The position numbers and the translations under genes were made by a program. Source: Venturia oleaginea (Eukaryota; Ascomycota; Dothideomycetes; Venturiales; Venturiaceae). Taken from it: DNA of 64,000 nt. Positions 1 through 31,233 of the stretch are shown one piece after another (position 1 is the first letter of the stretch; each line of letters opens with the position of its first letter). Under the pieces are notes generated by a model that had not been told where the DNA came from, did not search any database, and was given only the letters and a program-made list of their open reading frames with translations. Location: NCBI GenBank assembly GCA_013176395.1, contig JABMLP010000001.1, positions 1 to 64,000 on the forward strand. Direction: 5' to 3'.

Positions 1-3000
1 TGAGGGGTTCTGCAACTTCGGAAAAGCTTTCGATGAATTGTCGATAATAATTCGCGAAGGCGTGAAATGACTGTACTCCTTTGACGTTCGAGGGTACCGG
101 CCAATCGCGGACCTTCTGGTAAATTTCCGGGTCCATCTCAAGTCCATCTTGAGAGACAAAACATCCAACGAACTTGATTCGTTGCTTGTGGAATTCGCTT
201 TTCGAGGGTTTCAGCCGCAAGTTAAATATCTGTAGTGCGCGGAGGACGGTTCGAACGTGATTGGCGTGTTCTTCGAACGTTCGATAGTAAACCAAAATGT
301 CATCCATATAAACAGACACAAACTTGTCTAAGTGCTCGCGAAGCACATTGTTCATATAGGCTTGCAGCGTCGCAGGGGCGTTTGTCAAACCAAAGGGCAT
401 GACAAGGTATTCGTAGTGCTCAAGGTGAGTGCGGAATGCTGTCTTCCACTCGTCACCTTCCTTAATCCTAATTCGATGAAAAGCCGCAGGAATATCGAAT
501 TTCGTGAATCATCTGGCTCCTTGGAGTCTGTCCCTCAACTCCTGGATTAAAGGCAGCGTGTACGCATTCTTCACCGAAATCTCATTTAGATGTCGGTAAT
601 CGACACACAATCGTTGTGAACCATCGGGCTTGGGTACGTAGAAAACTGAATATCCGGCGGGTGACTTCGACTCCCGGATGAACTTCTTCTTCGTGAAATC
701 GTCGATATATTCACGAAGGGTTTCAAGCTGATCTTCCTCAATGGGTAGATCTTGAACTTCTTTGGTTGTTCATTATTCTTGAGCTTGATCTCATGATCCC
801 ATGGTTGGTGTGGTGGAAGAGAATCTTCGATCGATTCCCCTTTAAAAAGTTCTGCAAATTCCTGGTACCCATGGGGAATTTGGAACACTGACCTATCCTC
901 CTCTGTCTGGAGACGATAGCAGTATGCCACTTCAACGTGTGTAGGCCTTTTCCGCAAAGGTCTTTGTGCTGTCCGTGTTCTAGCGCGCATGCTAGCCTGC
1001 ACGGGATATCGTTGGTCTGGGAACGTGAGCGTCAATGTTCTCCAGTCGATATGCGGATTGTGAGTTCGAAGCCATGGCAGACCAAGGATCAAATCCGAGT
1101 CTCCAATATTCGTGACGTCTAGAACAATCTGTTCTTTCCTCCCTTGTATCCACAAGATTATGTCTGCTTCGTAGATCACTATGCCTCCATTGAAGTTGAC
1201 AGGTCTTCCATCAGCGATAGTTAGTGGATATGGATGCCGTTTCGACCGTACGGGTAGTTTCCATTCGTCGACCAATTTCTCGCTTAGAAGATTCCTATCG
1301 GCACCAGTGTCGATGAAGGCCCATGCTGGTACGTCGTCGATCTTTCCTTCGACCAGCATCTTGGATGTACCAAGGTTGTTCAGAAAATGAGGCGCTTCAT
1401 TAGGATTCAACAGGGCCTTCTCTACTGTTGATCCTCCTCGTTTCCCGAATTCTCATGCCATTTGCGTGCTTGCTTTGTTTTGACTGCGATGTCCAATCGT
1501 CGGACAAGGTGTCGAAGGTTCCTTGCCCCATTCGGATGGTATGGGCAGGTGAAGTCAAGGCATGCATTTGGATAGACGTCTTTGCACTGAGAATCGTCCT
1601 GATCAATTGCTCGTTCAACGTCTCGTGTCAAACGTGAGAGCCGGAAGGTCATAAACTCTAGATCTTCCTTCGATTCTCCTTCGTTGGAGTTGTCTTCTAC
1701 TGTAGACTCACTGTCGTCGCCCGACATAGACTGTAGAGATTCGTTTTCGTTTGGTGTAGACCAACTCCCGGAAATGGCTGGCAACTCTTGGAGTATTTCT
1801 CCAAGATCTTTCATTTCCTGGTGCTGAGGTAAATCGCATTCCTCATACTCGCAGCAATTCATAGGTGAGTGTCTGTGGTGGACGTGCTGTACATCTGTAC
1901 TGATGTTTGGGATTTTCATGATCTTCCTGAGGGTCGTATTGTTGACTTCCTTTTCGTGAACCAGTGGAATTCCCAATCTGGTTCTCCTGGGTCTTCCTCG
2001 GACTTGTGCTCCCACAGTGGGCATTCTTTGACTTTGTACCAGTTCGATGGAATCATCCAGTGAAGATCGTGTTCCGGATTCTTTCTCATGCTTGGGTATC
2101 TGCTGATAACTTTGACAGCAGCCATTGTATTCCCAACCCCGAATTGGTTTGTGCCATACTCTGCTTTTGGCAATACCAACTGAGTGCCATAAAGACCGGG
2201 TGAGCTAGATGACGAACTCATCATAGCGAGATGTCCTTTGACATTGCCGTTACCTTGGTAACCTCCTCTATCCCGAGGGTAGTATCCGGAGCTCTGCTTC
2301 TCGGATAGGTGTACTTTGCAGTCGTCCTCATAACAAGCCGTCCAGCTCAGTATGTTGTGGATTGGCGGTACTGACGCATCGGATTGTAAAGCCTTGAGGT
2401 GTTCTGAGCCCATGGGTGAGTTTCCGAATCGTTGTCCCTGATTCGTGAAACGTCCAGTGTTGTTCTTTTTTGGGGCTTTCTGACCTGTACTGTAAGAGTT
2501 CAACCCTCAAAGGTGTTTCGCAAGTGAGGGAAGACAGCTTATATTTCAAGTATCTAAGTACAGAGAAGAAAGTGTAAGTACAGGAAGGATAGCTCGTATA
2601 TATAATCCTCCTCTTACAATAGATCCTTCTAGAAAGTATCTTTAAATGGAAACGTGACAACTTGCAAAATAGAACATGACAGCTTGCAAAATAGAACATG
2701 ACAGCTTGCAAAATAGAACATGACAGCTTGCAAAATAGAACATGACAGCTTGCAGAATAACAAGAGAACAATTGGAAATCCAGTCATGGATAAGCTAGAG
2801 AGAAGGATTCCATCCCTTAACATGTACCTTTCTTGGATCCACGTGGAGCGCTCTGGATCTTGTCGAGCTCCATTGGCTGCGGTCCGTATGAATCAACTCA
2901 AACACCTATATTCGCACGACTGTTGCTTCCATGTCCTCGATAAGAACTAACTCCCTTCCTCTGAAGTTTTCTTTCGAATAGGCGGTTATCAATCTTGATT

Positions 3001-3057
3001 GACGTTCCAATCATCGAGTACAGGCTCTGAGGCTGAGTTTCCTTCCGACTGATTTCA
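1..3057 (-). pseudogene. Gag C-terminus, protease and RT relic of A-left
   Basis: Read on the minus strand from 3057 down. A gag C-terminal piece (IDNRLFERK-like motif and the LSWTACYEDDC box seen in fungal gypsy gags) is followed by a retropepsin with the DTGADRN motif near 1300 and the start of reverse transcriptase (CVDYRHLNE region near 600). The RT frame stops at a TGA within CCAGATGATTC near 510, the same stop as in A-right at 16685. A separate one-base deletion near 735 shifts the frame in this copy only. The gag capsid half is absent. The relic cannot make a functional polyprotein. Confidence 0.85.
2491..2822 (-). mobile_element. Solo LTR of B type in A-left
   Basis: A 332-bp LTR, TGTAAGAG...TTAACA, flanked on both sides by TGTAC (2486-2490 and 2823-2827), a 5-bp target duplication. 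The corresponding place in A-right has no insert. It is the same length as the B 3' LTR and holds five copies of a 22-bp unit (GACAGCTTGCAAAATAGAAC plus two bases). Solo LTRs arise by recombination between the two LTRs of a full element. Confidence 0.93.
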
Positions 3058-3482
3058 TCCTTGACAGTCTGCTCTGCAACCCTTATTACTAAGGACGGAG
3101 CTCCTAGGGACTATGAAGGTCAAGGGTATTGAATCTCTCTTCCTAACTCTTTCTTTCCTCAGCTTATTACAGCTTCAACTCCTAAGACTACGCTGTCTTA
3201 GGATGACCTCTGATTTCCTCTTTGTAAATTTTGCGAGAATTTACTGTGGATTGGCCCTTACAGTTGGCCCTTGCTTCTTGGAGATTCTAGCACCTTCTAG
3301 AAAATCTCAGCTTGAATTCTCTTGAATTCCCCTTTTGTTTGGCCCTTGAGGTTGGCTCTTGAGGTTGGTCTTTGAGGTTGGCCCTTGCTTCTTGGGTTAG
3401 GACAAGTGTTCTCTTCTTGAAATTCCTTTTTGTTTGGCCCTTGAGGTTGGCCCTTGAGGTTGGCCCTTGCTTCTTGGGTTAG

Positions 3483-3748
3483 GTGTCCTCTTTAGGACCT
3501 TGACTCTACAGGCTCTTCCTGAGACTACTGAAATGGCTGGGGTGTCCTCTTTAGGACCTTGACTCTGCAGGCTCGTCCTGAGAGTACTGAAAATGGCTTG
3601 GGTGTCCTCTTTAGGACCTTGACTCTACAGGCTCTTCCTGAGAGTACTGAAATGGCTGGGGTGTCCTCTTTAGGACCTTGACTCTGCAGGCTCATCCTGA
3701 GAGTACTGAAAATGGCTTGGGTGTCCTCTTTAGGACCTTGAATCACCA
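3483..3748. repeat. 59-60 bp tandem repeat in the A leader
   Basis: About four and a half units beginning GGTGTCCTCTTTAGGACC and ending in TACTGAAATGGCT. Alternate units carry one of two variants (CTACAGGCTCTTCC or CTGCAGGCTCGTCC), so the array may have grown by doubling a pair. A-right has one unit fewer (13873-14078). Confidence 0.85.
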
Positions 3749-4077
3749 ACAGGATTGACCTGGGAGTACTTTCAACTTGTGGGTGTCACTTTGGACGTTG
3801 TTGATATACCTTCGCAAAGGACAAGTTTCAACAACTCTCAATCTTCGACGTTCGTGATTACTACACAATGAGAAGATGTAGCATCCGTCCTAGGTTATGA
3901 GGTACCTAGCAAACTCTTTCTCAATGCCTCGCTCAATGGAGGGCTTTCTCAGTGCCTCGCTCGATGGAGGGCTTTCTCGGTACCTCGCTCAATGGAAGGC
4001 TTTCTCTTTGCTCTGACGATTGCTGCAGAGACTCTCTCTTACTGTCAGCAAGAGGTACTGGTGCGGTACTTAGATAA

Positions 4078-4358
4078 TGTAAGAGTTCAACCCTCAAAGG
4101 CGTTTCGCAAGTGAGAGAAGACTGCTTGTATTTCGAAGTATCTAAGTACAGAGAAGAATGTGTAAGTGTAGGAAGGACGACTAGTATATATGTCCTCCGT
4201 ATAAGAAAAAAGGACATGCTGTCCAGAGAAGTATGGAAAGGAATAGAAATACATGTGAAACAATCCTCAAACAATCCCTGCTAGGCGCACGTGAAAGACT
4301 ACCAGGTAGTGCTAAGAATCCATCCAGGATAAGTTGAGAAAGGATCTATCCTTTGACA
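4078..4358 (-). repeat. 5' LTR of A-left with primer site
   Basis: A 281-bp LTR with TGT...ACA ends, begin TGTAAGAG and end CTTTGACA on the plus strand. The primer-binding site lies one base inside the element at 4066-4076 (GTACTTAGATA on the plus strand). It is the exact complement of an 11-base stretch within the LTR. Confidence 0.88.
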
Positions 4359-4469
4359 GCTATGGCATAGAAGGTTTGCCCATTACGGGCCAAGTCCCTA
4401 AGATACGTCCACAAGGTTACTACCTTAGACCAGCCAATTCCTACCTTTGAGTCAAGAGACTGTCCATGC

Positions 4470-8607: not shown

Positions 8608-8902
8608 TGTAAGAGTTCAACCCTCAAAGGTGTTTCGCAAGTGAGAGAAGACTGCTTGTATTTCAAAGTATCTAAGTACAAAGAAGAAAGTGTAGGTACA
8701 GGAAGAACAACTTGTATATATAATCTTCCAAATAGGAAAAGGACATGCTGTCCTGAGAAGAGAATAGAAAGGAGTAGAAGCGCATGTGAGACGGGGTCCC
8801 TGAATAATCCCTGCTAGGCGCACGTGAGAACTATCAGGAACCTACCAGGAATTGCTAAGAATCCACCTAGGATAAATGGATATAGGATACCATCCCGTGA
8901 CA
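8608..8902 (-). mobile_element. Solo LTR, A-related with a variant end
   Basis: A 295-bp LTR starting TGTAAGAGTTCAACC and ending CATCCCGTGACA. It shares R-U5 and most of U3 with the A LTR, but the outer end is different. No 5-bp duplication is seen, so it is probably a recombination product. A 22-bp match to its outer end recurs at 45171-45192. Confidence 0.8.
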
Positions 8903-8959
8903 GCCATGCCCATAACATTACCCTCTCCTTACCGGCTGTACAGGACTAAAGAGGGTGTG

Positions 8960-10610
8960 GTAGGTGGGATAATTAAACAGACAAACGCAATACATCGCTT
9001 CTGCCAGCTTGTAGCAGGTTCGAAGGCGCTGGCCACCGCTACTCGGTTCCTTCGGGCCCCTGTTTGAGCTCCTATATCTTCGCCGACACCGTCGCCCTTG
9101 CCATACTCCGCCTCGAAGCGGTCTAAGTCCTCGACTTCTGTAAATAATGAACGTGGCTGCCAATCGGGATCTGCATAGTCTTTCCATTTGATTAATAACT
9201 GACGAGCCCAGCCTCGCCCAACCCTTTTCTTCTCTGCGCGAAGTATACGTTCCTACTTCAAACTCAGCCTCTGTTTCTTCGGTTTGAGGCACTAATGGTG
9301 GCGGCTAGGTATCATCGGTTTCTTGTGAGGGCAGTGTGTCGGTTGCGGCTCGGCGGAGTAGGTCAACGTGGAAACGGTTATGGATACCACTTGGCAGGTC
9401 AGCCAGCTCGTATACCATCGGGGAGATCTGGTTCTCGACAGTGTATTTGGCTTGCGTCCACGACAGTTTCTTTGATAGCTGCGGAGTATTGATATTCCTA
9501 AGGTTCAACCAGACTTTGTCGCCCCTTTTTAACGTTTCGGCAGCTTGACGTGACTTGTTGGCGTCGTTCTCCATCTTCTGCTGGGACCAGGCCATCGCTG
9601 CCTGTGCATATTCTTGTGCCTCTTCTATTCGTTGCACAAAGGTCTCGGCATCGGCTGCTGGTGAGTTACTGGGTGAGATTCGTTGTACTTTCTGGATTGG
9701 TTCCGCATGGTAGCCGTGGGTTAGATAGAATGGACTCATCCCTGTGACTGAAGAGTCACGATTGTTCAGTGCTAACGTAGCTGTAGGTAGTAGCGTTGGC
9801 CAGTCTAGTTGGGAGTATGCGATGAAGACGCGGAGATAGCGTAGAACTTCCTGGTTCATACGCTCGGTCGCGCCATCGGTCTGTGGATGAAAGGCTGTAG
9901 AGAATCTCTGCTCAATCTTTGCAAGTTCGCAAAGCTTCCTCCAAAAACGACCTGTCCAATTGCTGCCTCTGTCCGACGTCAATGCCATGGGAAATCCGTG
10001 GTAGCGATAGTGGCATTGTAAGAACCTTTTCGCGCACTCTTTGGCGCTCATTGTAGTCATAGCCTGCAACGTAACACTTTTGAGGAGGCGATCTGTGATA
10101 ACCATGAGGTATTTTGGGCCGTTTTCCTCCGCGGGCAAATCAGTCATGAAATCGATTGATAGCTCGCTGTGGAAGCGGGCCGGGATTGGTAGTGGTTTCA
10201 GAAGACCTCGCTTCTTATCACGCCATATTCCTTTTCTCCCACATACGTCGCAATTACGTACAAGCTGTCGGACTGTCTTGTATTGTTGGGGCCAAAGAAA
10301 CTTCTGGATAGAATCGCAAGCGTGCTATCTCTCCCTTGCTGTCCAGTAATATGGGAATCGTGAGTTTGTTGGACCAGCGTTGTTCACAGCGGTTCCCAAT
10401 CTGGTACCCATAGGATCCTTCTTCTCGTGACCGCGCCCGTGGTCGTCTACTTCGCATTCGGGTAGCTGTACCGACAACTTGAGCTCTGGAGGGAAGGAAC
10501 GTTCGCCAGTAACTATAGGTGTATGAATAGCTTGGTAGGATTGGTCCTCTGCTATTGCGCGATCCCAGAGAAGTTGTAACTCTGGTTTCTCGAAAAGATC
10601 GCATCCTTTT
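8960..10610 (-). pseudogene. Gypsy F integrase-chromodomain relic
   Basis: Minus strand, 10610 downward. The integrase zinc finger (HDS...RNCDVCGRK) is in broken frames near 10250-10380. The core is in a 280-codon open stretch (10147-9305) with ITDRL, TSDRGSNW and HPQTDGATERMNQ, which holds the second D and the E of the DDE triad. The GPY/F-like region (NLRNINTPQL, SGIHNRFHVDLLRR) follows. A chromodomain is recognisable near 9100-9240 (LLIKWKDYADPDWQP) after a frameshift. No gag, protease or RT is present and no LTR can be assigned. Confidence 0.82.
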
Positions 10611-10822
10611 GCAACTGACGGTTTTGACCGTACCTAATAGTGGACCGGTGTTGACCGTTTTCGGCAGTTAGCTGGTGTCGACCGTCCAATCCAGTATTTT
10701 GCTGGTGCTCCCGTTATAACGTCCCATGTACTATTGGATGTATTCGGTGTATTGACCGGGCAGATAAGGGCTTGTATTGCGATTGTTTCGGTCGTCCTCC
10801 CGGAAAGAGGAGGAAAGCCATT
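10611..10822. other. Unassigned sequence between F and an LTR
   Basis: Short imperfect repeats of a TTGACCG word occur here. No coding frame or recognised family is seen. Confidence 0.4.
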
Positions 10823-11112
10823 TGTAAGAGTTCAACCCTCAAAGGTGTTTCGCAAGTGAGGGAAGACAGCTTATATTTCAAGTATCTAAGTACAGAGAAG
10901 AAAGTGTAAGTGTAGGAAGGACGACTAGTATGTATGTCCTCCGTATAAGGAAAAAGGACATGCTGTCCAGAGAAGTATGGAAAGGAATAGAGATACATGT
11001 GAAACAACCTTCAACAATCCCTGCTAGGCGCACGTGAAAGTCTACCAGGAAACTATCAGGTAGTGCTAAGAATCCATCCAGGATAAGTTGAGAAAGGATC
11101 TATCCTTTAACA
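10823..11112 (-). mobile_element. Solo LTR, A-related
   Basis: A 290-bp LTR starting TGTAAGAG and ending CCTTTAACA. The inner flank lacks the TATCTAAGTAC primer site, so it is not the 5' LTR of a neighbouring element. Flanking bases (CCATT, GTAAG) do not match, which suggests recombination or deletion after insertion. Confidence 0.8.
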
Positions 11113-11225
11113 GTAAGAGCTAGGGTTAGGCGCGTATTCGAGCGCATTCCACCGCATTCTAAGCAATCTACTCTGGACGCGTCACGTGATCAACCAACTC
11201 GTCGGAACCGGAAGCGCCCGTGCGA

Positions 11226-11366: not shown

Positions 11367-11676
11367 ATCACAGGATAGGTTATCCTAGAACAAAAACAGT
11401 TCTGGGAATTGAAGCTGTGAAGCTGAGGAAAGAAAGAACTTGGGAGAGAGATACAATACCCTTGACCTTCATAGTCCCTGGGAGCTCTGTCCTTAGTAAT
11501 AAGGGTTGCAGAGCAGACTATAGTGTAAAAATCCTTCTGGGATTCTATAGTCACCTTCCTATACTAATAGGTGTTGACTCTATACTGCCTAGCAAATCTC
11601 TGGGGCAGAGCCTAGGAGTGTGTATAGGGTGCTTCCTATTGTCTCTCATTGATAAAAGGTTTTGAAGTTGTTCAAG

Positions 11677-13093
11677 ATGGAAGAAGAGCAAGGAGAGAAT
11701 GTCTCTCAATCTCAAGATCGAGCTCAAGCTCTACAAGGGGAAGTAGCAGCTTTGAAGGATCAAATGGCCGCTCAGAATACTATGATTCAACAACTCCTTG
11801 TACAACTCACAACTCCTGCTTCTATCCTCCTTGTCAAGAAGGAAGTAGCTCAGTTCAAGAGAGAACTATCTCCCAGGAGAGGAAGAAATCAATACTTCCT
11901 AAGCTTCAAGAGTTGACGGAAAGCGTTCTGAGTGGGCCCAGTGGTATCAACAAGCTAAGCTGAAGTTAGAAGTTGATGGAATAGCAGTAGGAGATGAATA
12001 TCAACAATTCGCTTACATCTTTGCATCCTTACGGGGTTCTGCTGCTCAGGCTACCTTAGCCTATGTTCAATCTTCTCCTGAAGAAGATAAAACAGGAAAG
12101 CAGCTACTTCAGTATATGGATAACTTCTACGATGATCCTGTACAGCAACAAAGAGCCACTGTTAGTCTTACGACTATGAAGCAAAAAGACAAAGAATCCT
12201 TCTACTCCTTCCTTCCGAAGTTTGAGAGTACTCTTGCCAATGCCGGAGGAATGGCATGGCCTGATGTTGTGAAAATTGCGTTTTTGAATAAGGCAATAAA
12301 CAACGAACTCCGTTTAAAGAGAATTGGACATCCTCAAAGCAATTCCTACAAGATATTTGTGTCCGAACTCTTGAATACGAGTATGCAAATTGCTACTGGA
12401 AAGATTTTATCTTCTTCAGATAGTAACGCTCTATTCAAAAGTAAGTCTTTGAAAACAAATTCGGATGCCATGGACTGGGAACCCACCCCTCGAGCAAACA
12501 AGTTAAACATTGCACCTAAGGACTACGAGTACAGACGTGCTAACAACCTCTGTTTATGCTGTGGGAAGGCCGGTCACCGAATTAAGGACTGTACTGCAAG
12601 GGAGGCAAGAGTATCTCAAACGACTACCAGGAAACTACCAGGAAGAGAACTGGAAATTGCGCAAGGGAAAGGAGAAGAGGAAGAAGGAGAAGACTACTCG
12701 GAAAAAGAGTAGCCTCTATCCGAAGTCGTGGATGGAGGCGTGAGCAGAAGAGACCTAGATTATCAATAGAATCTGTACGAAAAGTGAACAATATCATTTC
12801 TTCAAACTCCTCTCAGGTAGAAAAAGAATGGAAACAGTTTCAGCCAAGATGATTTCCCAACTCTTTTATACCAATGTTATTATAAATGATGTACACTCTC
12901 TTACAGGACTAATTGATAATGGGTCCAGCTGCTACGCATCGAATAAGCAAGGAGAAAGCCTCTCAATTGAACCTTGAACAGCTCCCTATTAGTCCTAGGA
13001 TAATAGGTGGAGTTCTCAAAGAAGGAAAGACCCAAGTGACGAGAATTGCTAAGATGAATCTTGATGTAGGAGGACACTGTTGTAACGCTTTTG
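11677..13093 (+). pseudogene. Gag and protease start of C
   Basis: The gag starts at the ATG at 11677 (MEEEQGENVSQ) and is shifted near 11915. It resumes through the capsid part (MDNFYDDPVQQQRATVS from 12116) and a zinc knuckle CLCCGKAGHRIKDC, ending at the TAG at 12710-12712. Pol begins in the -1 frame, as in B2, with the same GGAAAAAGAGTAG context. A one-base loss near 12852 breaks pol before the protease motif LIDNGSSCYAS. The sequence stops at the B insertion at 13094, where TTTTG is the target duplication. Confidence 0.8.
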
Positions 13094-13228
13094 TGTAAGA
13101 GTTCAACCCTCAAAGGTGTTTCGCAAGTGAGAGAAGACAGCTTATATTTCAAGTATCTAAGTACAGAGAAGAAAGTGTAAGTACAGGAAGGATAGCTGGT
13201 ATATATAATCCTCCTCTTACAATAGATC

Positions 13229-13508
13229 TGTCAAAGGATAGATCCTTTGACAACTTATCCTGGATGGATTCTTAGCACTACCTGGTAGTTCTCACGTGCG
13301 CCTAGCAGGATTATTCAGGGACCGTTTCACATGCGCTTCTACTCCTTTCTATTCTCTTCTCAGGACAGCATGTCCTTTTCCTACTTGGAAGATTATATAT
13401 ACAAGTTGTTCTTCCTGTACCTACACTTTCTTCTTTGTACTTAGATACTTTGAAATACAAGCAGTCTTCTCTCACTTGCGAAACACCTTTGAGGGTTGAA
13501 CTCTTACA
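13229..13508 (+). repeat. 5' LTR of A-right
   Basis: The 280-bp LTR opens with an almost perfect 24-bp palindrome (TGTCAAAGGAT, two bases, ATCCTTTGACA) and ends ACTCTTACA. The last third, from about the TATA motif, is nearly identical to the B LTR, while the first part (U3) is unrelated to B. Confidence 0.92.
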
Positions 13509-13520
13509 TTATCTAAGTAC
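13394..13520 (+). promoter_or_regulatory. TATA box, predicted transcript start and self-primer site of A
   Basis: TATATATA lies at 13394-13401. GTACTTAGATA lies 43 bases on, at 13437-13447. One base after the LTR, at 13510-13520, is TATCTAAGTAC, its exact 11-base complement. In Tf1 of fission yeast the first 11 bases of the RNA fold back to this site and prime reverse transcription, so 13437 is the predicted start of R. This is inference from the match. Confidence 0.7.
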
Positions 13521-13872
13521 CGCACCAATACCTCTTGCTGACAGTAAGAGAGAGTCTCTGCAGCAATCGTCAGAGCAAAGAGAAAGCCTTCCATTGAGCG
13601 AGGTACCGAGAAAGCCCTCCATCGAGTGAGGTACCGAGAAAGCCCTCCATCGAGCGAGGCACTGAGAAAGCCCTCCATTGAGCGAGGCATTGAGAAAGAG
13701 TTTGCTAGGTACCTCATAACCTAGGACGGATGCTACATCTTCTCATTGTGTAGTAATCACGAACGTCGAAGATTGAGAGTTGTTGAAACTTGTCCTTTGC
13801 GAAGGGATATCAACAACGTCCAAAGTGACACCCACAAGTTGAAAGTACTCCCAGGTCAATCCTGTTGGTGAG

Positions 13873-14078
13873 TCAAGGTCCTAAAGAGGACACCCAAGCC
13901 ATTTCAGTACTCTCAGGAAGAGCCTGTAGAGTCAAGGTCCTAAAGAGGACACCCAAGCCATTTTCAGTACTCTCAGGACGAGCCTGCAGAGTCAAGGTCC
14001 TAAAGAGGACACCCCAGCCACTTCAGTACTCTCAGGAAGAGCCTGTAGAGTCAAGGTCCTAAAGAGGACACCTAACCC
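13873..14078. repeat. 59-60 bp tandem repeat in the A-right leader
   Basis: Three and a half units starting GTCAAGGTCCTAAAGAGGAC. The same array is present inverted in A-left with an extra unit. It is followed (14080-14220) by GGGCCAACCTCAA-rich repeats that are shared with the B leader at 25440-25640. Confidence 0.85.
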
Positions 14079-14482
14079 AAGAAGCAAGGGCCAACCTCAA
14101 GGGCCAAACAAAAGGAATTTCAAGAAGAGAACACTTGTCCTAACCCAAGAAGCAAGGGCCAACCTCAAAGACCAACCTCAAGAGCCAACCTCAAGGGCCA
14201 AACAAAAAGGAAATTCAAGAGAATTCAAGCTGAGATTTTCTAGAAGGTGCTAGAATCTCCAAGGAGCAAGGGCCAACTGTAAGGGCCAATCCACAGTAAA
14301 TTCTCGCAAAATTTACAAAGAGGAAATCAGAGGTCATCCTAAGACAGCGTAGTCTTAGGAGTTGAAGCTGTAATAAGCTGAGGAAAGAAAGAGTTAGGAA
14401 GAGAGATTCAATACCCTTGACCTTCATAGTCCCTAGGAGCTCCGTCCTTAGTAATAAGGGTTGCAGAGCAGACTGTCAAGGA

Positions 14483-17400
14483 TGAAATCAGTCGGAAGGA
14501 AACTCAGCCTCAGAGCCTGTACTCGATGATTGGAACGTCAATCAAGATTGATAACCGCCTATTCGAAAGAAAACTTCAGAGGAAGGGAGTTAGTTCTTAT
14601 CGAGGACATGGAAACAACAGTCGTGCGAATATAGGTGTTTGAGTTGATTCATACGGACCGCAGCCAATGGAGCTCGACAAGATTCAGAGCGGTCCACGTG
14701 GATCCAAGAAAGTTACAGGTCAGAAAGCCCAAAAAGAACAACACTGGACGTTTCACGAATCAGGGACAACGATTCGGAAACTCACCCATGGGCTCAGAAC
14801 ACCTCAAGGCTTTACAATCCGATGCGTCAGTACCGCCAATCCACAACATACTGAGCTGGACGGCTTGTTATGAGGACGACTGCAAAGTATATTCCGAGAA
14901 GCAGAGCTCCGGATACTACCCTCGGGATAGAGGAGGTTACCAAGGTAACGGCAATGTCAAAGGACATCTCGCTATGATGAGTTCGTCATCTAGCTCACCC
15001 GGTCTTTATGGCACTCAGTTGGTATTGCCAAAAGCAGAGTATGGCACAAACCAATTCGGGGTTGGGAATACAATGGCTGCTGTCAAAGTTATCAGTAGAT
15101 ACCCAAGCATGAGAAAGAATCCGGAACACGATCTTCACTGGATGATTCCATCGAACTGGTACAAAGTCAAAGAATGCCCACTGTGGAGCACAAGTCCGAG
15201 GAAGACCCAGGAGAACCAGATTGGGAATTCCACTGGGTTCACGAAAAGGAAGTCAACAATACGACCCTCAGGAAGATCATGAAAATCCCAAACATCAGTA
15301 CAGATGTACAGCACGTCCACCACAGACACTCACCTATGAATTGCTGCGAGTACGAGGAATGCGATTTACCTCAGCACCAGGAAATGAAAGACCTTGGAGA
15401 AATACTCCAAGAGTTGCCAGCCATTTCCGGGAGTTGGTCTACACCAAACGAAAACGAATCTCTACAGACTATGTCGGGCGACGACAGTGAGTCTACAGTA
15501 GAAGACAACTCCAACGAAGGAGAATCGAAGGAAGATCTAGAGTTTATGACCTTCCGGCTCTCACGTTTGACACGAGACGTTGAACGAGCAATTGATCAGG
15601 ACGATTCTCAGTGCAAAGACGTCCATCCAAATGCATGCCTTGACTTCACCTGCCCATACCATCCGAATGGGGCAAGGAACCTTCGACACCTTGTCCGACG
15701 ATTGGACATCGCAGTCAAAACAAAGCAAGCACGCAAATGGCATGAGAATTCGGGAAACGAGGAGGATCAACAGTAGAGAAGGCCCTGTTGAATCCTAATG
15801 AAGCGCCTCATTTTCTGAACAACCTTGGTACATCCAAGATGCTGGTCGAAGGAAAGATCGACGACGTACCAGCATGGGCCTTCATCGACACTGGTGCCGA
15901 TAGGAATCTTCTAAGCGAGAAATTGGTCGACGAATGGAAACTGCCCGTACGGTCGAAACGGCATCCATATCCACTAACTATCGCTGATGGAAGACCTGTC
16001 AACTTCAATGGAGGCATAGTGATCTACGAAGCAGACATAATCTTGTGGATACAAGGGAGGAAAGAACAGATTGTTCTAGACGTCACGAATATTGGAGACT
16101 CGGATTTGATCATTGGTCTGCCATGGCTTCGAACTCACAATCCGCATATCGACTGGAGAACATTGACGCTCACGTTCCCAGACCAACGATATCCCGTGCA
16201 GGCTAGCATGCGCGCTAGAACACGGACAGCACAAAGACCTTTGCGGAAAAGGCCTACACACGTTGAAGTGGCATACTGCTATCGTCTCCAGACAGAGGAG
16301 GATAGGTCAGTGTTCCAAATTCCCCATGGGTACCAGGAATTTGCAGAACTTTTTAAAGGGGAATCGATCGAAGATTCTCTTCCACCACACCAACCATGGG
16401 ATTATGAGATCGAGCTCAAGAATAATGAACAACCAAAGAAGTTCAAGATCTACCCATTGAGGAAAGATCAGCTTGAAACCCTTCGTGAATATATCGACGA
16501 TTTCACGAAGAAGTTCATCCGGGAGTCGAAGTCACCCGCCGGATATTCAGTTTTCTACGTACCCAAGCCCGATGGTTCACAACGATTGTGTGTCGATTAC
16601 CGACATCTAAATGAGATTTCGGTGAAGAATGCGTACACGCTGCCTTTAATCCAGGAGTTGAGGGACAGACTCCAAGGAGCCAGATGATTCACGAAATTCG
16701 ATATTCCTGCGGCTTTTCATCGAATTAGGATTAAGGAAGGTGACGAGTGGAAGACAGCATTCCGCACTCACCTTGAGCACTACGTATACCTTGTCATGCC
16801 CTTTGGTTTGACAAACGCCCCTGCGACGCTGCAAGCCTATATGAACAATGTGCTTCGCGAGCACTTAGACAAGTTTGTGTCTGTTTATATGGATGACATT
16901 TTGGTTTACTATCGAACGTTCGAAGAACACGCCAATCACGTTCGAACCGTCCTCCGCGCACTACAGATATTTAACTTGCGGCTGAAACCCTCGAAAAGCG
17001 AATTCCACAAGCAACGAATCAAGTTCGTTGGATGTTTTGTCTCTCAAGATGGACTTGAGATGGACCCGGAAATTTACCAGAAGGTCCGCGATTGGCCGGT
17101 ACCCTCGAACGTCAAAGGAGTACAGTCATTTCACGCCTTCGCGAATTATTATCGACAATTCATCGAAAGCTTTTCCGAAGTTGCAGAACCCCTCACGGGA
17201 TTGATGAAGAAGGGGATTACCTTGGAATGGAACGAGCATGCGCAAAAGGCCTTTGACGCACTCAAGATACGGTTAACAACACCACCCATTCTGCAACTGT
17301 TTAACTCAGAAAAAACAGCCACAGTCGAGGCGGATGCGTCCGATCGAGCCCTCGGAGCATGTCTCAGCCAACCTGATTCAGATGGAAAGCTAAGACCAGT

Positions 17401-18108
17401 AGCTTACCACGCACGAAAATTCCTGAAAGCAGAAGTCATCTACTCCACTTCAGACAAGGAACTCATGGCCATAGTTGATGCCTTCAAGTACTGGAAGCAT
17501 TATCTTGAAGGAGCGAAACACAAGATTACCGTGTATTCCGATCACAAGAACCTGCGGAATTTCACGACGACAAAGGAATTGAATCGACGGCAACTAAGAT
17601 GGTCAGAAGAACTGTCATTTTACAACTTCCATATCCTTTACAAGAAAGGAAAGGAAAACGTTAACGCCGATGCATTAAGTCGACGAGAAGACTTCATGGC
17701 AGGAGAAAAAGAGAAAGTCGAACGCGCTTTGTTCCGACAGAAGGTGATGCACTTGTGCACCAAGTCTCATCACTTCAGACAGGAAAGTCCTCTTATTGGC
17801 AAGAGGTCAGGAACGCGCAGCAAAGGATCCAGATGTACAAGGCTACATTCAATCAGCAGATCAGAATACCCGTATTGAAGACGGATTGCTCCTCTTCAAC
17901 AACTTGGTATATCTTCCCACGAGCCTTAGGAAACAGTACTTCCTACATCAACACGAATCTCCACTCAATGGTCATTGCCGACCAGAGATTGTCCTTTCAC
18001 GACTTCAGAATACCTTCTACTTCCCGCGCATGCGACAGGAAGTTTTCAAGGAAATAGGAAAGTGTGTTCTTTGCAAAAAGGCCAAGTACGAACGACAGAA
18101 ACTGTCGC
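14483..18108 (+). pseudogene. Foreign gypsy gag-pol segment carried by A-right
   Basis: The B-like leader ends at GCAGAGCAGACT and the next bases open a typical gag C-terminal frame (IDNRLFERKLQRKG, then PQPMELDKIQ, then LSWTACYEDDCKV). A retropepsin follows from 15788 (FIDTGADRNLL). RT starts (CVDYRHLNE) but hits TGA at 16685-16687; beyond it are MPFGLTNAPATLQ, VYMDDILVYY and RNase H (VEADASDRALGACL, DKELMAI, YSDHKNLRNF). The integrase zinc finger ends in CVLCKKAKYERQK and then jumps, near 18108, to a B-like tail LDTFESIYGDVFQNDG. The DDE core is missing. Gag also carries a TGA near 14643. Confidence 0.88.
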
Positions 18109-18228
18109 ATTAGATACCTTTGAAAGTATCTACGGTGATGTTTTTCAAAACGACGGACCGAGTCTACGTCCTCCTAGGCGTACAAAAAGCAAAACCGCCC
18201 CAACGGAAACGGGGGAGAAGAAGGGTAA
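18109..18228 (+). other. B-like 3' tail and polypurine tract of A-right
   Basis: This encodes the last residues of a B-type pol tail (FESIYGDVFQNDGPSLRP) and ends with GGGGGAGAAGAAGGG, the polypurine tract for plus-strand DNA synthesis, just before the 3' LTR. It shows that the 3' end of A comes from a B-like element and not from the carried segment. Confidence 0.8.
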
Positions 18229-18509
18229 TGTCAAAGGATAGATCCTTTGACAACTTATCCTGGATGGATTCTTAGCACTACCTGGTAGTTCTCACGTGCG
18301 CCTAGCAGGGATTATTCAGGGACCGTTTCACATGCGCTTCTACTCCTTTCTATTCTCTTCTCAGGACAGCATGTCCTTTTCCTACTTGGAAGATTATATA
18401 TACAAGTTGTTCTTCCTGTACCTACACTTTCTTCTTTGTACTTAGATACTTTGAAATACAAGCAGTCTTCTCTCACTTGCGAAACACCTTTGAGGGTTGA
18501 ACTCTTACA
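18229..18509 (+). repeat. 3' LTR of A-right
   Basis: A 281-bp LTR identical by eye to the 5' LTR except for one extra G in CAGGGATT. Such close LTRs mark a recent insertion, since both are copied from one template. Confidence 0.92.
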
Positions 18510-18711
18510 AGATCCTTCTAGAAAGTATCTTTAAATGGAAACGTGACAGCTTGCAAAATAGAACATGGCAGCTTGCGAAATAGAACATGACAGCTTGCAA
18601 AATAGAACATGACAGCTTGCAAAATAGAACATGACAGCTTGCAGAATAACAAGAGAACAATTGGAAATCCAGTCATGGATAAGCTAGAGAGAAGGATTCC
18701 ATCCCTTAACA

Positions 18712-21700
18712 CGTTCTGACTAAATGTACAGAACTTACGTAGATAGGCTTCAACTTCTTGATTTCTTCTTTCCGTAGATCCATCAGTCTCAGGGTGATAC
18801 GCTGTAGAGAGTCTTCTCTCTATCTTAAGAAGGTGACAAACTTCTTTCCAGAAAGCATTAACAAATTGCGTGTCCCTATCTGAGACTAGAGATCTAGGAA
18901 GCCAGTGTAATCTTACGTAGTTCTGCATAAATAGTTTTGCAAATCCTTCAGCTCCAAACTGTTCTTTAGGCACTGGGAACAGGATAGTTCCTTTACCCAA
19001 GCGGTCAGTAATAACGCAGAGTCTTGTGCATCTTTGGCTCTCTGGTAATTCGACTATGAAGTCTACTGAAATATCTTGCCAGATACGGCTAGGGACAGGA
19101 AGAGGTTTAAGTAAACCTTTCTTTTTGTCTCGCCAGACTGAAGTTCTTCCGCAGATGTCACAATTGCGTATAAACTGACGTATATCTTGAGCAAATCCCG
19201 GCCAGTAGAACTGTCTGGAGAGAATAGCAATAGTAGCTTCTCGTCCAGGATGCCCTGATAGGACTGAATCGTGTATTTCTTGAATTACTCCTGTTAAGAG
19301 AGGCTCGTAGGAGGGCAACCAGATTCGGTCTCTATAGTAGAGCTGGTTATTTTCGACTTTACAATCTCCTATAGAAGTAGGAACCTTTAGCTTAGATGGG
19401 AACTGCCTATCTTGCTTTAGAACGCTTTGGAAAATACGTCTGTAGTCTAGATCTCCTTCGAGTGCAGTTTCCCATCTATCCCTTAGATCACCTGAGAGAA
19501 AGGGATTTTGTATAAAGGGGATAGGTTCTTTGTCTACTTCTTGAGCATTTTCTTGGGCAGCTTCTTCTCTTGCAGGAGTCTTATCCTCTAGAACGTTAAT
19601 CCAAAGCTTTGGAGGTAATAACGTTCTAGTTCTTTCAACGATTCTTGGGTCTTGAATATCCTTTGGGAGATCTTGATCCCTTCGAGTTAAGGCGTCTGGA
19701 ACTACAGATTCAGAGCCTGGGCGATAGCCTAGTTTGAAGTTAAACTTAGCTAGTATCTGCGCCCATCTCATTTGCCTTTCATTTAGTTCCCTTTTTACCA
19801 TAAACTTCTCAAGGTTCTTGTGATCTGTGAGGATAATGAATGGCTTACTTAGGCTTAGTAGCTCGCTAGTCCAATGGACTAGAGCTTTGACTATAGCCAT
19901 AAGTTCTTTGTCGTGGATATCATAATTGCATTCGGCTGGCAAGTGCTTAGTAGAGAAGAAAGCACATGGTTTCCAGTTACCTAGCTCATCTTTTTGACTA
20001 AGTACTGCTCCGGAAGCCCAGCCTGAAGCATCAGGTTCTACTCGCGTAGGCTTATCTTCATCAAGTGCAGACAGGACAGGTTCTTTGCAAAACTCTGCCT
20101 TAAGTTTTTGAAAAGATTCTTCTTGCTCCTTTCCCCATAAAAATGGAGTATTCTTCTTTGTAAGGCGAACCAGAGGCTCCCTTATTGTTGAGTTATCTTT
20201 TACAAAGTCACGGTAGAAGTTTGTAAAGCCTAGGAAGCCACGTACTCCTCGTAGAGTAGTAGGACGTTCCCATTCTTTAATTGCTTTGATCTTCTCCGGA
20301 TCCATGTGTAGGCCCGTTTCAGTATCTATAACGAAGCCTAGATACTTGACTCGTTTGGTATTAAACTCGCACTTCCGAATATCAAGGTATAACCCAGCGT
20401 TAAGGCAGCTTTGAAGTATCTTTTCAGTCTTTTCTTCATGGTCTTTAAGGTTCTTTGAAGAGTATATTACTATATCGTCTAGATAAGCTGAGCAGAACTC
20501 GTCTAGGTATCGTCGAAGGATATAGTTTATATACCGTTGAAAAGACGCAGGTGCACCGGTTAAGCCAAAGGGAGTAACTAGCCATTCAAATAGACCATAT
20601 CTAGTTCGAAAGGCAGTTTTGAACTCATCTCCCGTTGCGATTCGAATCTTGTGGAAGGCAGCATTTACATCAAGCTTACTAAGATACTTAGCACGAGCTA
20701 AGGTTAGTAAAGTCTCTTTTACTAACGGTAGCGGGTACCTATCCTTTCGAGTAATTGCGTTTAAGGCTCGGTAGTCTACGCAAAAGCGTAAGCCCCCTCC
20801 TGGTTTCTTCACAAAGAGAACTGGAGACGCAGCAACTGATTTACTCTCTCGGATAAAGCCTTTATCTAGTAGCTCTGTAAGAGTCCTTCGCAAAACAAGG
20901 AGTTGTTCTCGACCCATACCATATAGAGGTCCCCAAGGAAGTGGTTTTCCTTCTTCTATAGGTATTTCGTGATCAATCCCAGGGCGATGCGGTGGTAGTC
21001 TCTCGGCCCTTTTAGGATCAAAGACAGCAGCGTACTTATGAAACCTCTTAGGTAGCAATTCCAGTATTTGCTCTGTTGTCAAAGGGACTTTCGGCTTCAA
21101 GGCAATATCAATATCTCGAAGAGTAACAGCAAATACTCTAGACGCGTCTTTGATTTTCTCAAGTGTAGAAGTGACAAGGCGGTGGAATCTTACGGGCGCT
21201 ACTTGTTGTATATCAAGTTTGTCTTCAAATTTAGCATCGCGAATGCTAATCCCGTTTGCAAAGGTAAGAGTACCTTTAGATTCATTGATAACGGCTTTGG
21301 TGTCCTTGAGAAAAGGCCTGCCTAGTAGAAGATCCTCAAATTGTCCCGGGACTATATAAGCAAAAGCGTTGCATATAAGTCCCCCTAAATCTAGGTTCAA
21401 CTTCGCAATTTTTGTCACTTGGGTCTGTCCTTCTTCCTTAAGAACTCCACCTATAGTACGCGGACTAATAGGGAGTACTTCAAGGTCCATCTGCGAAGCT
21501 TTCTCCTCGTTTATTGATGCGTAGCAGCTAGATCCATTATCAAGGAGAGTTTTAAGAGAGTATATATCGTTCACTATAGTATTTGTGTAGAAAAGGCGGG
21601 AGAGCATCTTGGGTCTGAACTGCTCCCATTCTTTTTCTATCCGAGAACGGTGTGAATCAGTGTCTTTGTTCGAATTCAAAATACTATTTACTCTCTCAAT

Positions 21701-21790
21701 TGACTCCTTTGACAATTTTGCTCTATCTACTCTACGCCTCCATCCACGACTTTGGATAGAGGCTACTCTTTTTCCGAGTAGTCCTCTTCT
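18712..21790 (-). pseudogene. Pol of element B, truncated in integrase
   Basis: Open in the -1 frame relative to gag from about 21790 and co-linear with the B2 pol (paired coordinates add to 48852). Protease [17 protein letters not shown] and YLDDIVIYS, RNase H DASGWASGAV and TDHKNLEKF, the integrase zinc finger (CDICGRT) and the D and E motifs SDRDTQF and HPETDGSTERRN are all intact. After CTFSQ the frame leaps into the 3' LTR and ends there at 18518. The C-terminal integrase part and the chromodomain are deleted. A CDICGRT to CDVCGRT change is the one residue difference from B2 I noticed. Confidence 0.88.
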
Positions 21791-22785
21791 TCAACTTCTT
21801 CATTCTCCTCAGTGGTTCCTTTGGCCCTTTTTGAACCAAGTTGCGTGACTCTTTCTACCTCTGTATCCAACCAGCAGTCTTTCATTCTATGGCCGGCCTT
21901 CCCACAGCGTAAGCAGAGGTTATTTGCCTTCCTATATTCATAGGCTTTAGACGAAATTTTTAACTTGTTTACGCGTGTAGGCTCCCAGTCCATAGCGTTC
22001 AGATCTTTAAAAGACTTCTCTTTATCTCTGAATCGTAACTTATCTTCTGAGGAAGAGAGCATCTTTGCTGTAGTGATTTGCATACTTGTATTCAAAAGAT
22101 CGGACACAAACTGCTGGTAGGAGGTACTCTGAGATTGGCCTATTCTCTGGTTTCGCAGCTCTTGATTTATTGCTTTGTGTAGAAATGCAATTTTAACAGC
22201 GTCAGGCCAAGTCATTCCTCCAGCATTAGCAAGAGTGGTTTCAAAACGGGGAAGAAAAGAGAAGAAGGGTTCTTTCTCTTTTTGTTTGATTGTGGACAGG
22301 CTTACAGTAGCTCTTTGTTGTTGTACTGGATCGCCATAGAAGTTGTCCATATACTGTAACAATTTCTGTCCCGTTTTATCTTCCTCTGGAGCTGTCTTTA
22401 CGTAGGCCAGAGTAGCCTGAGCTGCGGAGCCTCGTAGAGAGGAGAAGATGTAGGCAAATTGGTTCCTACTATCCCCTATAGACTCTGCGTCTATCTCCAA
22501 CTTCATCCTTGCTTGTTGAAACCACTGAGCCCATTCAGAACGCTTGCCATCAAATTCTTGGAGCTTAGGAAGTACAGCTTTCTTCCTATGTATTCTGTCT
22601 TTTTGTGAATTCTTAGTCTCTTGTCCTTCTACTACGTTCTCAGAGCGAGTAGTGTTAGGCAAGATTGTAAGAATACGCGTAATAGCATCGTTCTGAATGG
22701 CTAGTTGATGTTGTAATGCTGCCATAGCTTCTTGTAGGGCTTGGGGTTCTTGAGGAACTCTTTGTTCCTGATCTTCTCCTTCCAT
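21763..22785 (-). CDS. Gag of element B
   Basis: 340 residues, identical by eye to the B2 gag at 26067-27089. It holds a coiled N-terminal stretch (QEAMAALQHQLAIQNDAI), a retrotransposon capsid region (residues about 80-230) and one CCHC zinc knuckle CLRCGKAGHRMKDC near residue 295. It would form the particle that packages element RNA. The stop codon sits just after a run of five A in CGGAAAAAGAGTAG. Confidence 0.9.
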   Translation of the reverse strand: MEGEDQEQRVPQEPQALQEAMAALQHQLAIQNDAITRILTILPNTTRSENVVEGQETKNSQKDRIHRKKAVLPKLQEFDGKRSEWAQWFQQARMKLEIDAESIGDSRNQFAYIFSSLRGSAAQATLAYVKTAPEEDKTGQKLLQYMDNFYGDPVQQQRATVSLSTIKQKEKEPFFSFLPRFETTLANAGGMTWPDAVKIAFLHKAINQELRNQRIGQSQSTSYQQFVSDLLNTSMQITTAKMLSSSEDKLRFRDKEKSFKDLNAMDWEPTRVNKLKISSKAYEYRKANNLCLRCGKAGHRMKDCWLDTEVERVTQLGSKRAKGTTEENEEVEEEDYSEKE

Positions 22786-23450
22786 ATTTTCACCTATGAG
22801 AGATAATAGAGAGCACTACTATACACACTCCTAGGCTCTACTCTAGAGATTTGCTAGGCAGTATAGAGTCAATGCCTATTAGTATAGGAAGGTGACTATA
22901 GAATCCCAGAAGGATTTTTTACACTATAGTCCGCTCTGCAATCCTTATTACTAAGGACAGAGCTCCCAGGGACTGTGAAGGCCAAGTGTATTAAATCTCT
23001 CTCCCTAGCTCTTTCTTTCCTCAGCTTATTACAGCTTCAACTCCTAAGACTACGCTGTCTTAGGATGACCTGCCCTTGCTTCTTGGAGATTCTAGCACGT
23101 TCTAGAAAATCTCAGTTTGAATTCTCTTGAATTCCCTTTTTGGATTGGCCCTTTCGATTGGCCCTTGCTTCTTGGAGATTCTAGCACCTTCTAGAAAATC
23201 TCAGCTTGAATTCTCTTGAATTCCCTTTTTTGTTTGGCCCTTGAGATTGGCCCTTGAAGTTGGCCTTTGAGGTTGGCCCTTGCTTCTTGAGTTAGGACAA
23301 GTGTCCTCTTCTTGAAATTCCTTTCTGTTTGGCCCTTGAGGTTGGCCCTCGCTTCTTGGATTAGGACAAGTGTCCTCTTCTTGAAATTCCTTTTTGGAGC
23401 TTGCTCTCTGTGAGCCTTTCTTCCTTTGTAAGATTGAGGTACTTAGATAA

Positions 23451-23760
23451 TGTAAGAGTTCAACCCTCAAAGGTGTTTCGCAAGTGAGGGAAGACAGCTT
23501 ATATTTCAAGTATCTAAGTACAGAGAAGAAAGTGTAAGTACAGGAAGGATAGCTCGTATATATAATCCTCCTCTTACAATAGATCCTTCTAGAAAGTATC
23601 TTTAAATGGAAACGTGACAGCTTGCAAAATAGAACATGACAGCTTGCAAAATAGAACATGACAGCTTGCAAAATAGGACATGACAGCTTGCAGAATAACA
23701 AGAGAACAATTGGAAATCCAGTCATGGATAAGCTAGAGAGAAGGATTCCATCCCTTAACA
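23451..23760 (-). repeat. 5' LTR of element B
   Basis: 310 bp, TGTAAGAG...TTAACA, with four 22-bp units. The primer site is at 23439-23449, one base inside the element. Confidence 0.92.
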
Positions 23761-25092: not shown

Positions 25093-25403
25093 TGTTAAGG
25101 GATGGAATCCTTCTCTCTAGCTTATCCATGACTGGATTTCCAATTGTTCTCTTGTTATTCTGCAAGCTGTCATGTTCTATTTTGCAAGCTGTCATGTTCT
25201 ATTTCGCAAGCTGCCATGTTCTATTTCGCAAGCTGTCACGTTTCCATTTAAAGATACTTTCTAGAAGGATCTATTGTAAGAGGAGGATTATTTATACGAG
25301 CTATCCTTCCTGTATTTACACTTTCTTCTCTGTACTTAGATACTTTGAAATACAAGCAGTCTTCTCTCACTTGCGAAACACCTTTGAGGGTTGAACTCTT
25401 ACA
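25093..25403 (+). repeat. 5' LTR of B2
   Basis: 311 bp, TGTTAAGGG...CTCTTACA. U3 contains four 22-bp tandem units upstream of the TATA-like motif. Confidence 0.95.
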
Positions 25404-25415
25404 TTATCTAAGTAC
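25288..25415 (+). promoter_or_regulatory. TATA-like box, predicted start and self-primer site of B2
   Basis: TATTTATA at about 25288-25295, GTACTTAGATA at 25332-25342, LTR end at 25403 and TATCTAAGTAC at 25405-25415. The second and last are exact 11-base complements with a one-base gap after the LTR, the same as in A. Confidence 0.72.
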
Positions 25416-26066
25416 CTCAATCTTACAAAGGAAGAAAGGCTCACAGAGAGCAAGCTCCAAAAAGGAATTTCAAGAAGAGGACACTTGTCCTAATCCAAGA
25501 AGCGAGGGCCAACCTCAAGGGCCAAACAGAAAGGAATTTCAAGAAGAGGACACTTGTCCTAACTCAAGAAGCAAGGGCCAACCTCAAAGGCCAACTTCAA
25601 GGGCCAACCTCAAGGGCCAAACAAAAAGGGAATTCAAGAGAATTCAAGCTGAGATTTTCTAGAAGGTGCTAGAATCTCCAAGAAGCAAGGGCCAACCGAA
25701 AGGGCCAATCCAAAAAGGGAATTCAAGAGAATTCAAACTGAGATTTTCTAGAACGTGCTAGAATCTCCAAGAAGCAAGGGCAGGTCATCCTAAGACAGCG
25801 TAGTCTTAGGAGTTGAAGCTGTAATAAGCTGAGGAAAGAAAGAGCTAGGAAGAGAGATTTAATACACTTGGCCTTCACAGTCCCTGGGAGCTCTGTCCTT
25901 AGTAATAAGGATTGCAGAGCGGACTATAGTGTAAAAATCCTTCTGGGATTCTATAGTCACCTTCCTATACTAATAGGCATTGACTCTATACTGCCTAGCA
26001 AATCTCTAGAGTAGAGCCTAGGAGTGTGTATAGTAGTGCTCTCTATTATCTCTCATAGGTGAAAAT
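25404..26066 (+). other. Untranslated leader of B2
   Basis: No long open frame leads into gag. It holds GGGCCAACCTCAA-rich direct repeats (25440-25640) and a stretch from about 25780 to 25925 that recurs in the leaders of A and B. It probably carries the packaging signal, by analogy with other LTR elements. Confidence 0.6.
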
Positions 26067-30922: not shown

Positions 30923-31233
30923 TGTTAAGGGATGGAATCCTTCTCTCTAGCTTATCCATGACTGGATTTCCAATTGTTCTCTTGTTATTCTGCAAGCTGT
31001 CATGTTCTATTTTGCAAGCTGTCATGTTCTATTTCGCAAGCTGCCATGTTCTATTTCGCAAGCTGTCACGTTTCCATTTAAAGATACTTTCTAGAAGGAT
31101 CTATTGTAAGAGGAGGATTATTTATACGAGCTATCCTTCCTGTATTTACACTTTCTTCTCTGTACTTAGATACTTTGAAATACAAGCAGTCTTCTCTCAC
31201 TTGCGAAACACCTTTGAGGGTTGAACTCTTACA
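30923..31233 (+). repeat. 3' LTR of B2
   Basis: 311 bp, identical by eye to the 5' LTR. Confidence 0.95.

What the first reader, a model, noticed from the sequence alone, without database searches (positions are those of the whole stretch)
13229..18509. A chimeric, non-autonomous retrotransposon: B-like shell around a foreign gypsy segment
Seen: both A copies share with B the R-U5 part of the LTR, the primer site, about 0.9 kb of leader and (in A-right) the pol tail and polypurine tract, but the interior from 14483 to about 18108 belongs to another gypsy lineage. The join ...GCAGAGCAGACT|GTCAAGGATG is the same in A-left (near 3057). The carried part has no gag capsid region, no integrase core, and a TGA in RT that both copies share. 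Yet A-right has near-identical LTRs and a perfect AGATC duplication. Inference: template switching in a particle captured a segment of another element and the hybrid then multiplied using B-type proteins.
Basis: partly seen in the sequence, partly recalled or inferred. Interest (0 to 1): 0.85.

Follow-up and report, generated by a model that had tools for sequence, protein, structure and literature searches.

The report
Hybrid, helper-dependent fungal retrotransposon family
A jumping DNA element in a fungal genome was stitched together from at least two different elements, carries a borrowed enzyme gene that in most copies decays as dead cargo, and still spread to many places, probably by using another element's proteins.

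Summary
In the 46-Mb fungal assembly the 5' join occurs at 59 places and the tail behind the 3' join at 44 (0 in reversed-pattern controls); 28 joins pair at 2.8-4.3 kb. Seven different sites carry perfect 5-bp duplications; LTRs are identical in 4 of 12 complete copies. The donor lineage exists with full gag and a 1214-aa pol, and donor-lineage copies run unbroken through each join point. The captured piece starts at the end of the capsid match and stops after the integrase zinc finger; the zinc knuckle and integrase core are missing. In 14 copies sharing the RT stop the cargo evolves neutrally; cargo and donor otherwise differ mostly by silent changes.

Corrections: (1) the shell is not B itself. 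Its pol tail was found only in the chimera, at 73-82% from B-like relatives; leader and LTR are patchworks. (2) The RT stop is in 19 of 22 copies; a sublineage with an open protease-RT-RNase H frame also moved. (3) The families tested (A, B, C, D) each have a Tf1-like 11-nt self-primer match; A uses the B-type one.

Two template switches, then copying by B-type proteins in trans, fit best; both steps are inferred.

The parts
13224..13228 (+). AGATC target duplication, left copy
13229..13508 (+). 5' LTR of A-right (A1 type). Positions 1-35 match the A2-type LTR, 71-210 match the P-type LTR, the last 70 (R-U5) are near-identical in A, P and B
13437..13447 (+). GTACTTAGATA, inferred 5' end of R and self-primer
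   Evidence: 11-nt complement to the PBS
13510..13520 (+). TATCTAAGTAC, self-primed primer-binding site, one base behind the LTR
   Evidence: 0 of 500 shuffles of the 32 downstream bases reach 11
13521..14474 (+). Leader: 13509-13808 without a good match in B or P, 13809-14058 P-like repeats of about 59 bp, 14059-14408 B-like, last part like the E/P leader
14474..14475 (+). 5' join, shell to donor gag
14476..18097 (+). Captured donor segment: end of capsid, gag C part without zinc knuckle, protease, RT, RNase H, integrase zinc finger
16685..16687 (+). In-frame TGA in RT, in 19 of 22 A-type rows that cover it
18097..18103 (+). 3' join, donor integrase zinc finger to shell pol tail; 4-5 nt possible shared bases if the lost shell read like B
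18104..18228 (+). Shell pol tail (last codons of a B-like pol) and purine-rich tract
18229..18509 (+). 3' LTR of A-right
18510..18514 (+). AGATC target duplication, right copy
1..4358 (-). A-left: A2-type LTR at 4078-4358, same 5' join at 3045-3080, B-type solo LTR inserted at about 2488-2823, cut by the contig start
25093..31233 (+). B: complete element, gag frame 26037-27089, pol frame 27062-30922 (1286 aa), identical LTRs; candidate helper
11405..13093 (+). E: part of another B-like family; its leader equals A up to the 5' join

Best explanation
A is a family of chimeric, non-autonomous LTR retrotransposons. A B-related element, not found as an element of its own in this assembly, gave the cis-acting shell: LTR, self-primed PBS, leader, pol tail and purine tract. 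A gypsy/chromovirus of another lineage (D, nearest a D' sublineage) gave a colinear internal piece from the end of capsid to the integrase zinc finger. The likeliest origin is co-packaging of two RNAs and two template switches during minus-strand synthesis: from the shell tail to donor RNA, then back to the shell leader. The hybrid spread to many sites. Lacking capsid, zinc knuckle and integrase core, it must take these from an intact relative, most likely B. In the main sublineage the captured pol is now neutral cargo. Shown: structure, two joins, donor, insertions, neutrality. Inferred: template switching, co-packaging, B as helper.
For: Joins: 59 and 44 places, 0 in controls, 28 same-strand pairs at 2.8-4.3 kb, four more at 9-14.5 kb that probably hold insertions. 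Insertion: 7 distinct perfect 5-bp duplications (7 of 15 rows, two of them one duplicated site; L038); LTR pairs identical in 4 of 12. Donor: L039 with gag frame 692 aa and pol frame 1214 aa, 90.7% identical over protease to integrase zinc finger; L037 91.6%. L056 crosses the 5' point and L050, L051, L053, L057 cross the 3' point with donor sequence on both sides. D' fragment L051 is 95.4% identical to A. Defects: and, for an A copy without the stop; the 46 donor bases at the knuckle are absent from A. Neutral cargo: 27 silent and 62 amino-acid changes in 14 copies against 27.0 silent expected, 95% range 18-36. Shell: same 11-nt self-primer as B, R-U5 35/35 and 35/35 to B. Helper at hand: 89 of 150 scored rows have an open 1286-aa B pol frame (hand count).
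Against: No RNA, particle or transposition data. The 5' join shows at most 1-3 shared bases and one or two bases that neither known parent explains. The parent of the shell was not found, so the join at the 3' side cannot be compared with both true parents. B's own MFE fold does not form the primer duplex (only the centroid does), and both folds are within the shuffle range (z -1.58, 17 of 200; z -0.99, 35 of 200). Over 19 A copies that include those without the stop, the pairwise nonsilent/silent ratio is 0.57, not 1. DNA-level recombination among copies is plainly active (L035 with unlike LTRs, tandem L031/L032, arrays).
Confidence: 0.8

Rival explanations
1. The chimera arose at the DNA level: the donor piece replaced the middle of an integrated B-like element by ectopic recombination or repair, and only then was transcribed and spread.
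For: DNA recombination among these repeats is active: L035 has one A2 and one A1 LTR (87.7%), L031/L032 share an LTR, C34 and C11 hold regular arrays. Little sequence is shared at the 5' join.
Against: Two exchanges in the same orientation and the same gene order are needed at unlike sequences; the A1 LTR is a further patchwork inside U3, which is usual for reverse transcription of mixed RNAs (abstract of PMC5668417).
Confidence: 0.2
2. A is an ordinary autonomous family whose gag and integrase were overlooked or have diverged beyond recognition.
For: An A sublineage (L038, L052) still has an open 790-aa protease-RT-RNase H frame and a 370-aa gag-C frame.
Against: No gag or integrase-core match in either A type at E up to 0.5; no room: the 3' join leaves about 40 codons of pol tail; colinear donors carry the missing parts outside the joins.
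Confidence: 0.03
3. The copies are mainly segmental duplicates of chromosome ends and not transpositions.
For: Many are: A-left, L025 and L035 share a flank, L020/L022/L023/L028 are near-identical blocks, C1 and C61 begin alike.
Against: Seven distinct 5-bp duplications, identical LTR pairs, and an A inserted in another A (L027).
Confidence: 0.05
4. The helper is the donor D, or P, and not B.
For: D has at least 12 near-identical copies with an intact gag segment and open pol frames in some; P and A1 exchanged LTR sequence (98.0% over 255 bp with L044 and L045).
Against: D uses another self-primer (AGTGAAGATAC against TATCTAAGTAC) and shares no LTR or leader with A. P has 6 rows, most with short or broken frames, while B has 89 open frames among 150 rows.
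Confidence: 0.2

Closest known systems
BARE-2 of barley (non-autonomous, gag-defective; title 'Life without gag' and passages in PMC10025401 seen; details recalled)
   Same: Non-autonomous LTR element without working gag that lives off a relative
   Different: Here capsid, knuckle and integrase core are deleted, and the pol piece comes from another lineage; fungal, self-primed
LTR swapping between autonomous and non-autonomous soybean elements (Du et al. 2010; only the title seen in reference lists; paper not held)
   Same: Exchange of LTR sequence between a helper family and a dependent one
   Different: Here the exchange lies inside U3, in a fungus, and comes on top of a foreign pol segment
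Ty1/Ty2 hybrids (PMC7175516) and Tf1/Tf2 hybrids (PMC10085805; passages seen)
   Same: Hybrid fungal LTR elements made by recombination
   Different: Those join close relatives; here B and the D lineage differ at about 60% of pol residues (37-41% identity)
Complex elements by template switching in Triticeae (PMC1950507, abstract seen) and Onsen recombinants (PMC5668417, abstract and passages)
   Same: Template switching as source of new elements
   Different: Those are fusions or within-family recombinants; this one is a double join across lineages that became a family
Tf1/sushi self-primed chromoviruses (PMC7175516, PMC10085805 passages)
   Same: 11-nt complement between LTR and PBS in A, B, C and D
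   Different: A itself encodes no integrase core or chromodomain

Membership tests
Non-autonomous LTR retrotransposon | LTR pair, PBS, purine tract and target duplication | tested here: met
Non-autonomous LTR retrotransposon | Lacks proteins needed for its own movement | tested here: met
   no gag or integrase core; zinc knuckle bases absent
Non-autonomous LTR retrotransposon | Mobilised in trans by a named helper | not testable with these tools
   B inferred from shared R-U5, PBS and part of leader
Chimeric (recombinant) retrotransposon | Parts from two lineages with unjoined relatives of each part | tested here: met
   donor side; shell side: E leader runs on as E/B at the 5' point, P and B tails on the 3' side
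Chimeric (recombinant) retrotransposon | Actual parent of the shell found | tested here: not met
   tail 45-mer with up to 3 mismatches found only in A; a more diverged parent would be missed
Tf1/sushi self-primed group | First 11 bases of RNA complementary to PBS | tested here: met
   the RNA start itself is inferred
Tf1/sushi self-primed group | Folded primer structure | tested here: inconclusive
   A MFE forms it, B only in the centroid; neither stands out from shuffles
Tf1/sushi self-primed group | Chromodomain integrase and RT clade | tested here: inconclusive
   Chromo in D (50.6 bits, cut-off 25.1) and weakly in B (24.3); not in A; no RT tree built
BARE-2 type | gag present but not translated, pol intact (recalled) | tested here: not met
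   capsid deleted; pol lacks integrase core
LARD / TRIM | Long non-coding or miniature interior (recalled) | tested here: not met
   4.7-kb interior derived from gag-pol

The most novel reading that the evidence does not exclude
The shell (U3-R-U5, self-primer, leader, pol tail) works as an interchangeable replicon: it outlived its own autonomous family, took in the body of another chromovirus lineage, and goes on trading LTR pieces with P while B copies it. The early form, still present as moved copies with an open protease-RT-RNase H frame, may have brought foreign enzymes into B particles before the cargo died.
Probability: 0.3. Interest if true: 0.7.

Novelty: new variant of a known kind. 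Interest (0 to 1): 0.52.

Why it matters
Most recombinant LTR elements known to me join close relatives. Here both joins, the donor lineage, relatives of the shell and two stages of the cargo (open and stopped) sit in one assembly, so the birth and decay of a hybrid can be read step by step. It also separates what is needed in cis (LTR, self-primer, leader, tail) from what can be replaced, and makes it directly testable which family packages the hybrid.

Tried and rejected
Shell from family C: the integrase piece at 9305-10324 beside an A1-like LTR suggested it, but C (L040) has a 176-bp LTR unlike A's. Shell is B: rejected, U3 unlike, tail 80-82% over 55 bases. Shell is P: LTR body fits, tail 73-81% and leader about 80-84% do not. 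RIP as source of the stops: no CpA excess (C>T before A 13 of 42; TA/AT 0.57 in A). L049 as a donor with its own gag: its sequence at the 5' point is interrupted by insertions, so it is read as A-type. L054 and L058 gave no match at the expected 5' point, so C60 and C13 were not shown to cross it. L055 does not run on into donor sequence. Organism: one gene's hits point to Dothideomycetes-like fungi, best named hits near 50% identity; no name given.

Dropped rows: 14 of the 19 copies with the stop were used; L020, L022, L023, L028 and L035 were left out as near-duplicates of others. In the copy table 24 A-type rows were looked at out of 59 join places; the rest were counted by pattern only. 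Lists are capped.
Full report
What is there. A-right (13229-18509) is a complete LTR element with an AGATC duplication, LTRs that differ by one gap only, a PBS right behind the LTR and a purine-rich tract before the 3' LTR. Between a B-related leader and a B-related pol tail lies a piece of another gypsy element: gag C part, protease, RT, RNase H and the integrase zinc finger. B (25093-31233) has identical LTRs and GAACC on both sides.

Copies. In the 46.08-Mb assembly of 61 contigs that holds the window, the 36-base 5' join with up to 3 mismatches occurs 59 times, 54 of them exactly, and its reversed control 0 times. The 45-base tail occurs 44 times, control 0. 28 joins pair with a tail on the same strand at 2.8-4.3 kb, four more at 9.3-14.5 kb; two opposite-strand neighbours fall in the same range. 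Of 15 copies with both ends read, 7 have perfect 5-bp duplications at six sites; L038 adds a seventh. In 12 complete copies the LTR pairs are 100% identical in four, 99.6% in three, 97.9-98.9% in four, and 87.7% in L035, which bears two LTR types. Several copies are segmental duplicates of one insertion (A-left, L025, L035; and L020, L022, L023, L028), so 59 is not a count of insertions.

Donor. A protein search of the assembly with the A RT found 92-96% relatives with long frames. L039 has a 692-aa gag frame and a 1214-aa pol frame with capsid, zinc knuckle, protease, RT, RNase H, zinc finger, integrase core and chromodomain matches; the integrase core is under Pfam's cut-off (30.8 against 32.6 bits) but at E 3.7e-7. 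Its gag segment has 12 near-identical copies and 11 weaker matches. A aligns with it from the end of the capsid match to the zinc finger: 90.7% (L037: 91.6%) over protease to zinc finger, about 71% over the faster gag part, with 46 donor bases missing at the knuckle. Donor-lineage copies cross each join point unbroken: L039, L037 and L056 the 5' point; L039, L037, L050, L051, L053 and L057 the 3' point. The nearest is a D' fragment, L051, at 95.4% over RT-RNase H, Ks 0.055 to the A copy L038 against 0.24 between L038 and L039.

Shell. At the 5' join the E leader equals A to the last shell base and then runs on as B does. The first 300 bases behind the PBS match neither B nor P, the next 250 are P-like repeats, the next 350 B-like. 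The tail is 77-81% identical to five P copies over 79 bases, 73% to a sixth over 124, and 80-82% to B over 55. So no separate parent was seen; a parent with more than 3 changes in 45 bases would be missed.

LTR patchwork. The A1 LTR matches the A2 type in bases 1-35 (33/35; P 21-22 of 37) and the P type in bases 71-210 (34-35 of 35-36 without one P copy's insert; A2 23-30 of 35-36). The last 70 bases are 34-35 of 35 in every row, B included. P copies L044 and L045 share the A1 form of one U3 stretch while L043 and L046 do not, so exchange may run both ways.

Priming. An 11-base match between the bases behind the LTR and the LTR is found in A-right, A-left, L038, B, C and D; the sequence is the same in A and B and another in C and in D. 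For A-right 0 of 500 shuffles reach 11. Passages of PMC7175516 and PMC10085805 describe just this for Tf1. Folding is inconclusive: A forms the duplex in its MFE, B only in its centroid, and neither is unusual against shuffles.

Cargo. The RT TGA is in 19 of 22 A-type rows that cover it; L038, L049 and L052 lack it. L038 has a perfect CCACC duplication, and L038 and L052 do not differ in 1983 bases yet have different 3' flanks, so the form without the stop also moved. In 14 copies with the stop, 27 silent and 62 other changes were found, six of them new stops; 27.0 silent are expected without selection (95% 18-36). Between A and L039, 68 of 108 are silent against 33 expected. Ka/Ks of A to D is 0.13-0.19, to L051 0.39-0.40. 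Over all A pairs the ratio is 0.57, so constraint lasted in part of the A history.

How it works, with marks. Shown: joins, donor, missing parts, insertions, neutrality. Inferred: minus-strand synthesis began on shell RNA, jumped to donor RNA at the 3' join and back at the 5' join; the hybrid RNA is packaged, copied and integrated by proteins of a relative, most likely B, of which 89 of 150 scored rows have an open 1286-aa frame (hand count). DNA recombination cannot be excluded for the origin and is active among the copies.

Known or new. Hybrid and dependent LTR elements are known (see Closest known systems). In the held library, eight searches listed no fungal family with a captured pol segment of another lineage; these saw titles, abstract starts and a few passages only, and subscription journals are mostly missing. 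I call it a new variant of a known kind.

Noticed in passing
18712-23760 and 25093-30140: Two B copies head to head as an inverted repeat with 5-kb arms, 99.6% identical.
   Followed up: no
C11:1117937-1149410, C18:665370-675867, C27:289546-300043, C34:156462-176529: Regular arrays with steps of about 10.0 kb (C34) or 10.5 kb (C11, C18, C27) that hold the A joins; in L048 (C11) A is broken by B-type LTRs.
   Followed up: partly
C34:200885-206049: Three steps of 1828 bp in which an A-type LTR start follows directly behind the 5' join; looks like multimers of LTR plus leader.
   Followed up: no
window 1-4359: Contigs C1 and C61 begin, and C32 ends, at the same base of an A copy, so the contig ends are probably assembly breaks in repeats.
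   Followed up: no
8608-11113: An A1-like LTR, a piece of family C integrase and an A2-like LTR lie together on the minus strand; a mosaic remnant repeated on C7, C32, C33 and C61.
   Followed up: partly
L040 (C34:141400-149200): Family C: 176-bp identical LTRs, 1373-aa pol frame, a third very abundant self-primed family.
   Followed up: no
13870-14079 and other A copies: The leader has repeats of about 59 bp whose number differs between copies.
   Followed up: no
42946-44613 and 45434-50603: A DDE_1 transposase match and, by eye, a LINE-like pair of frames.
   Followed up: no
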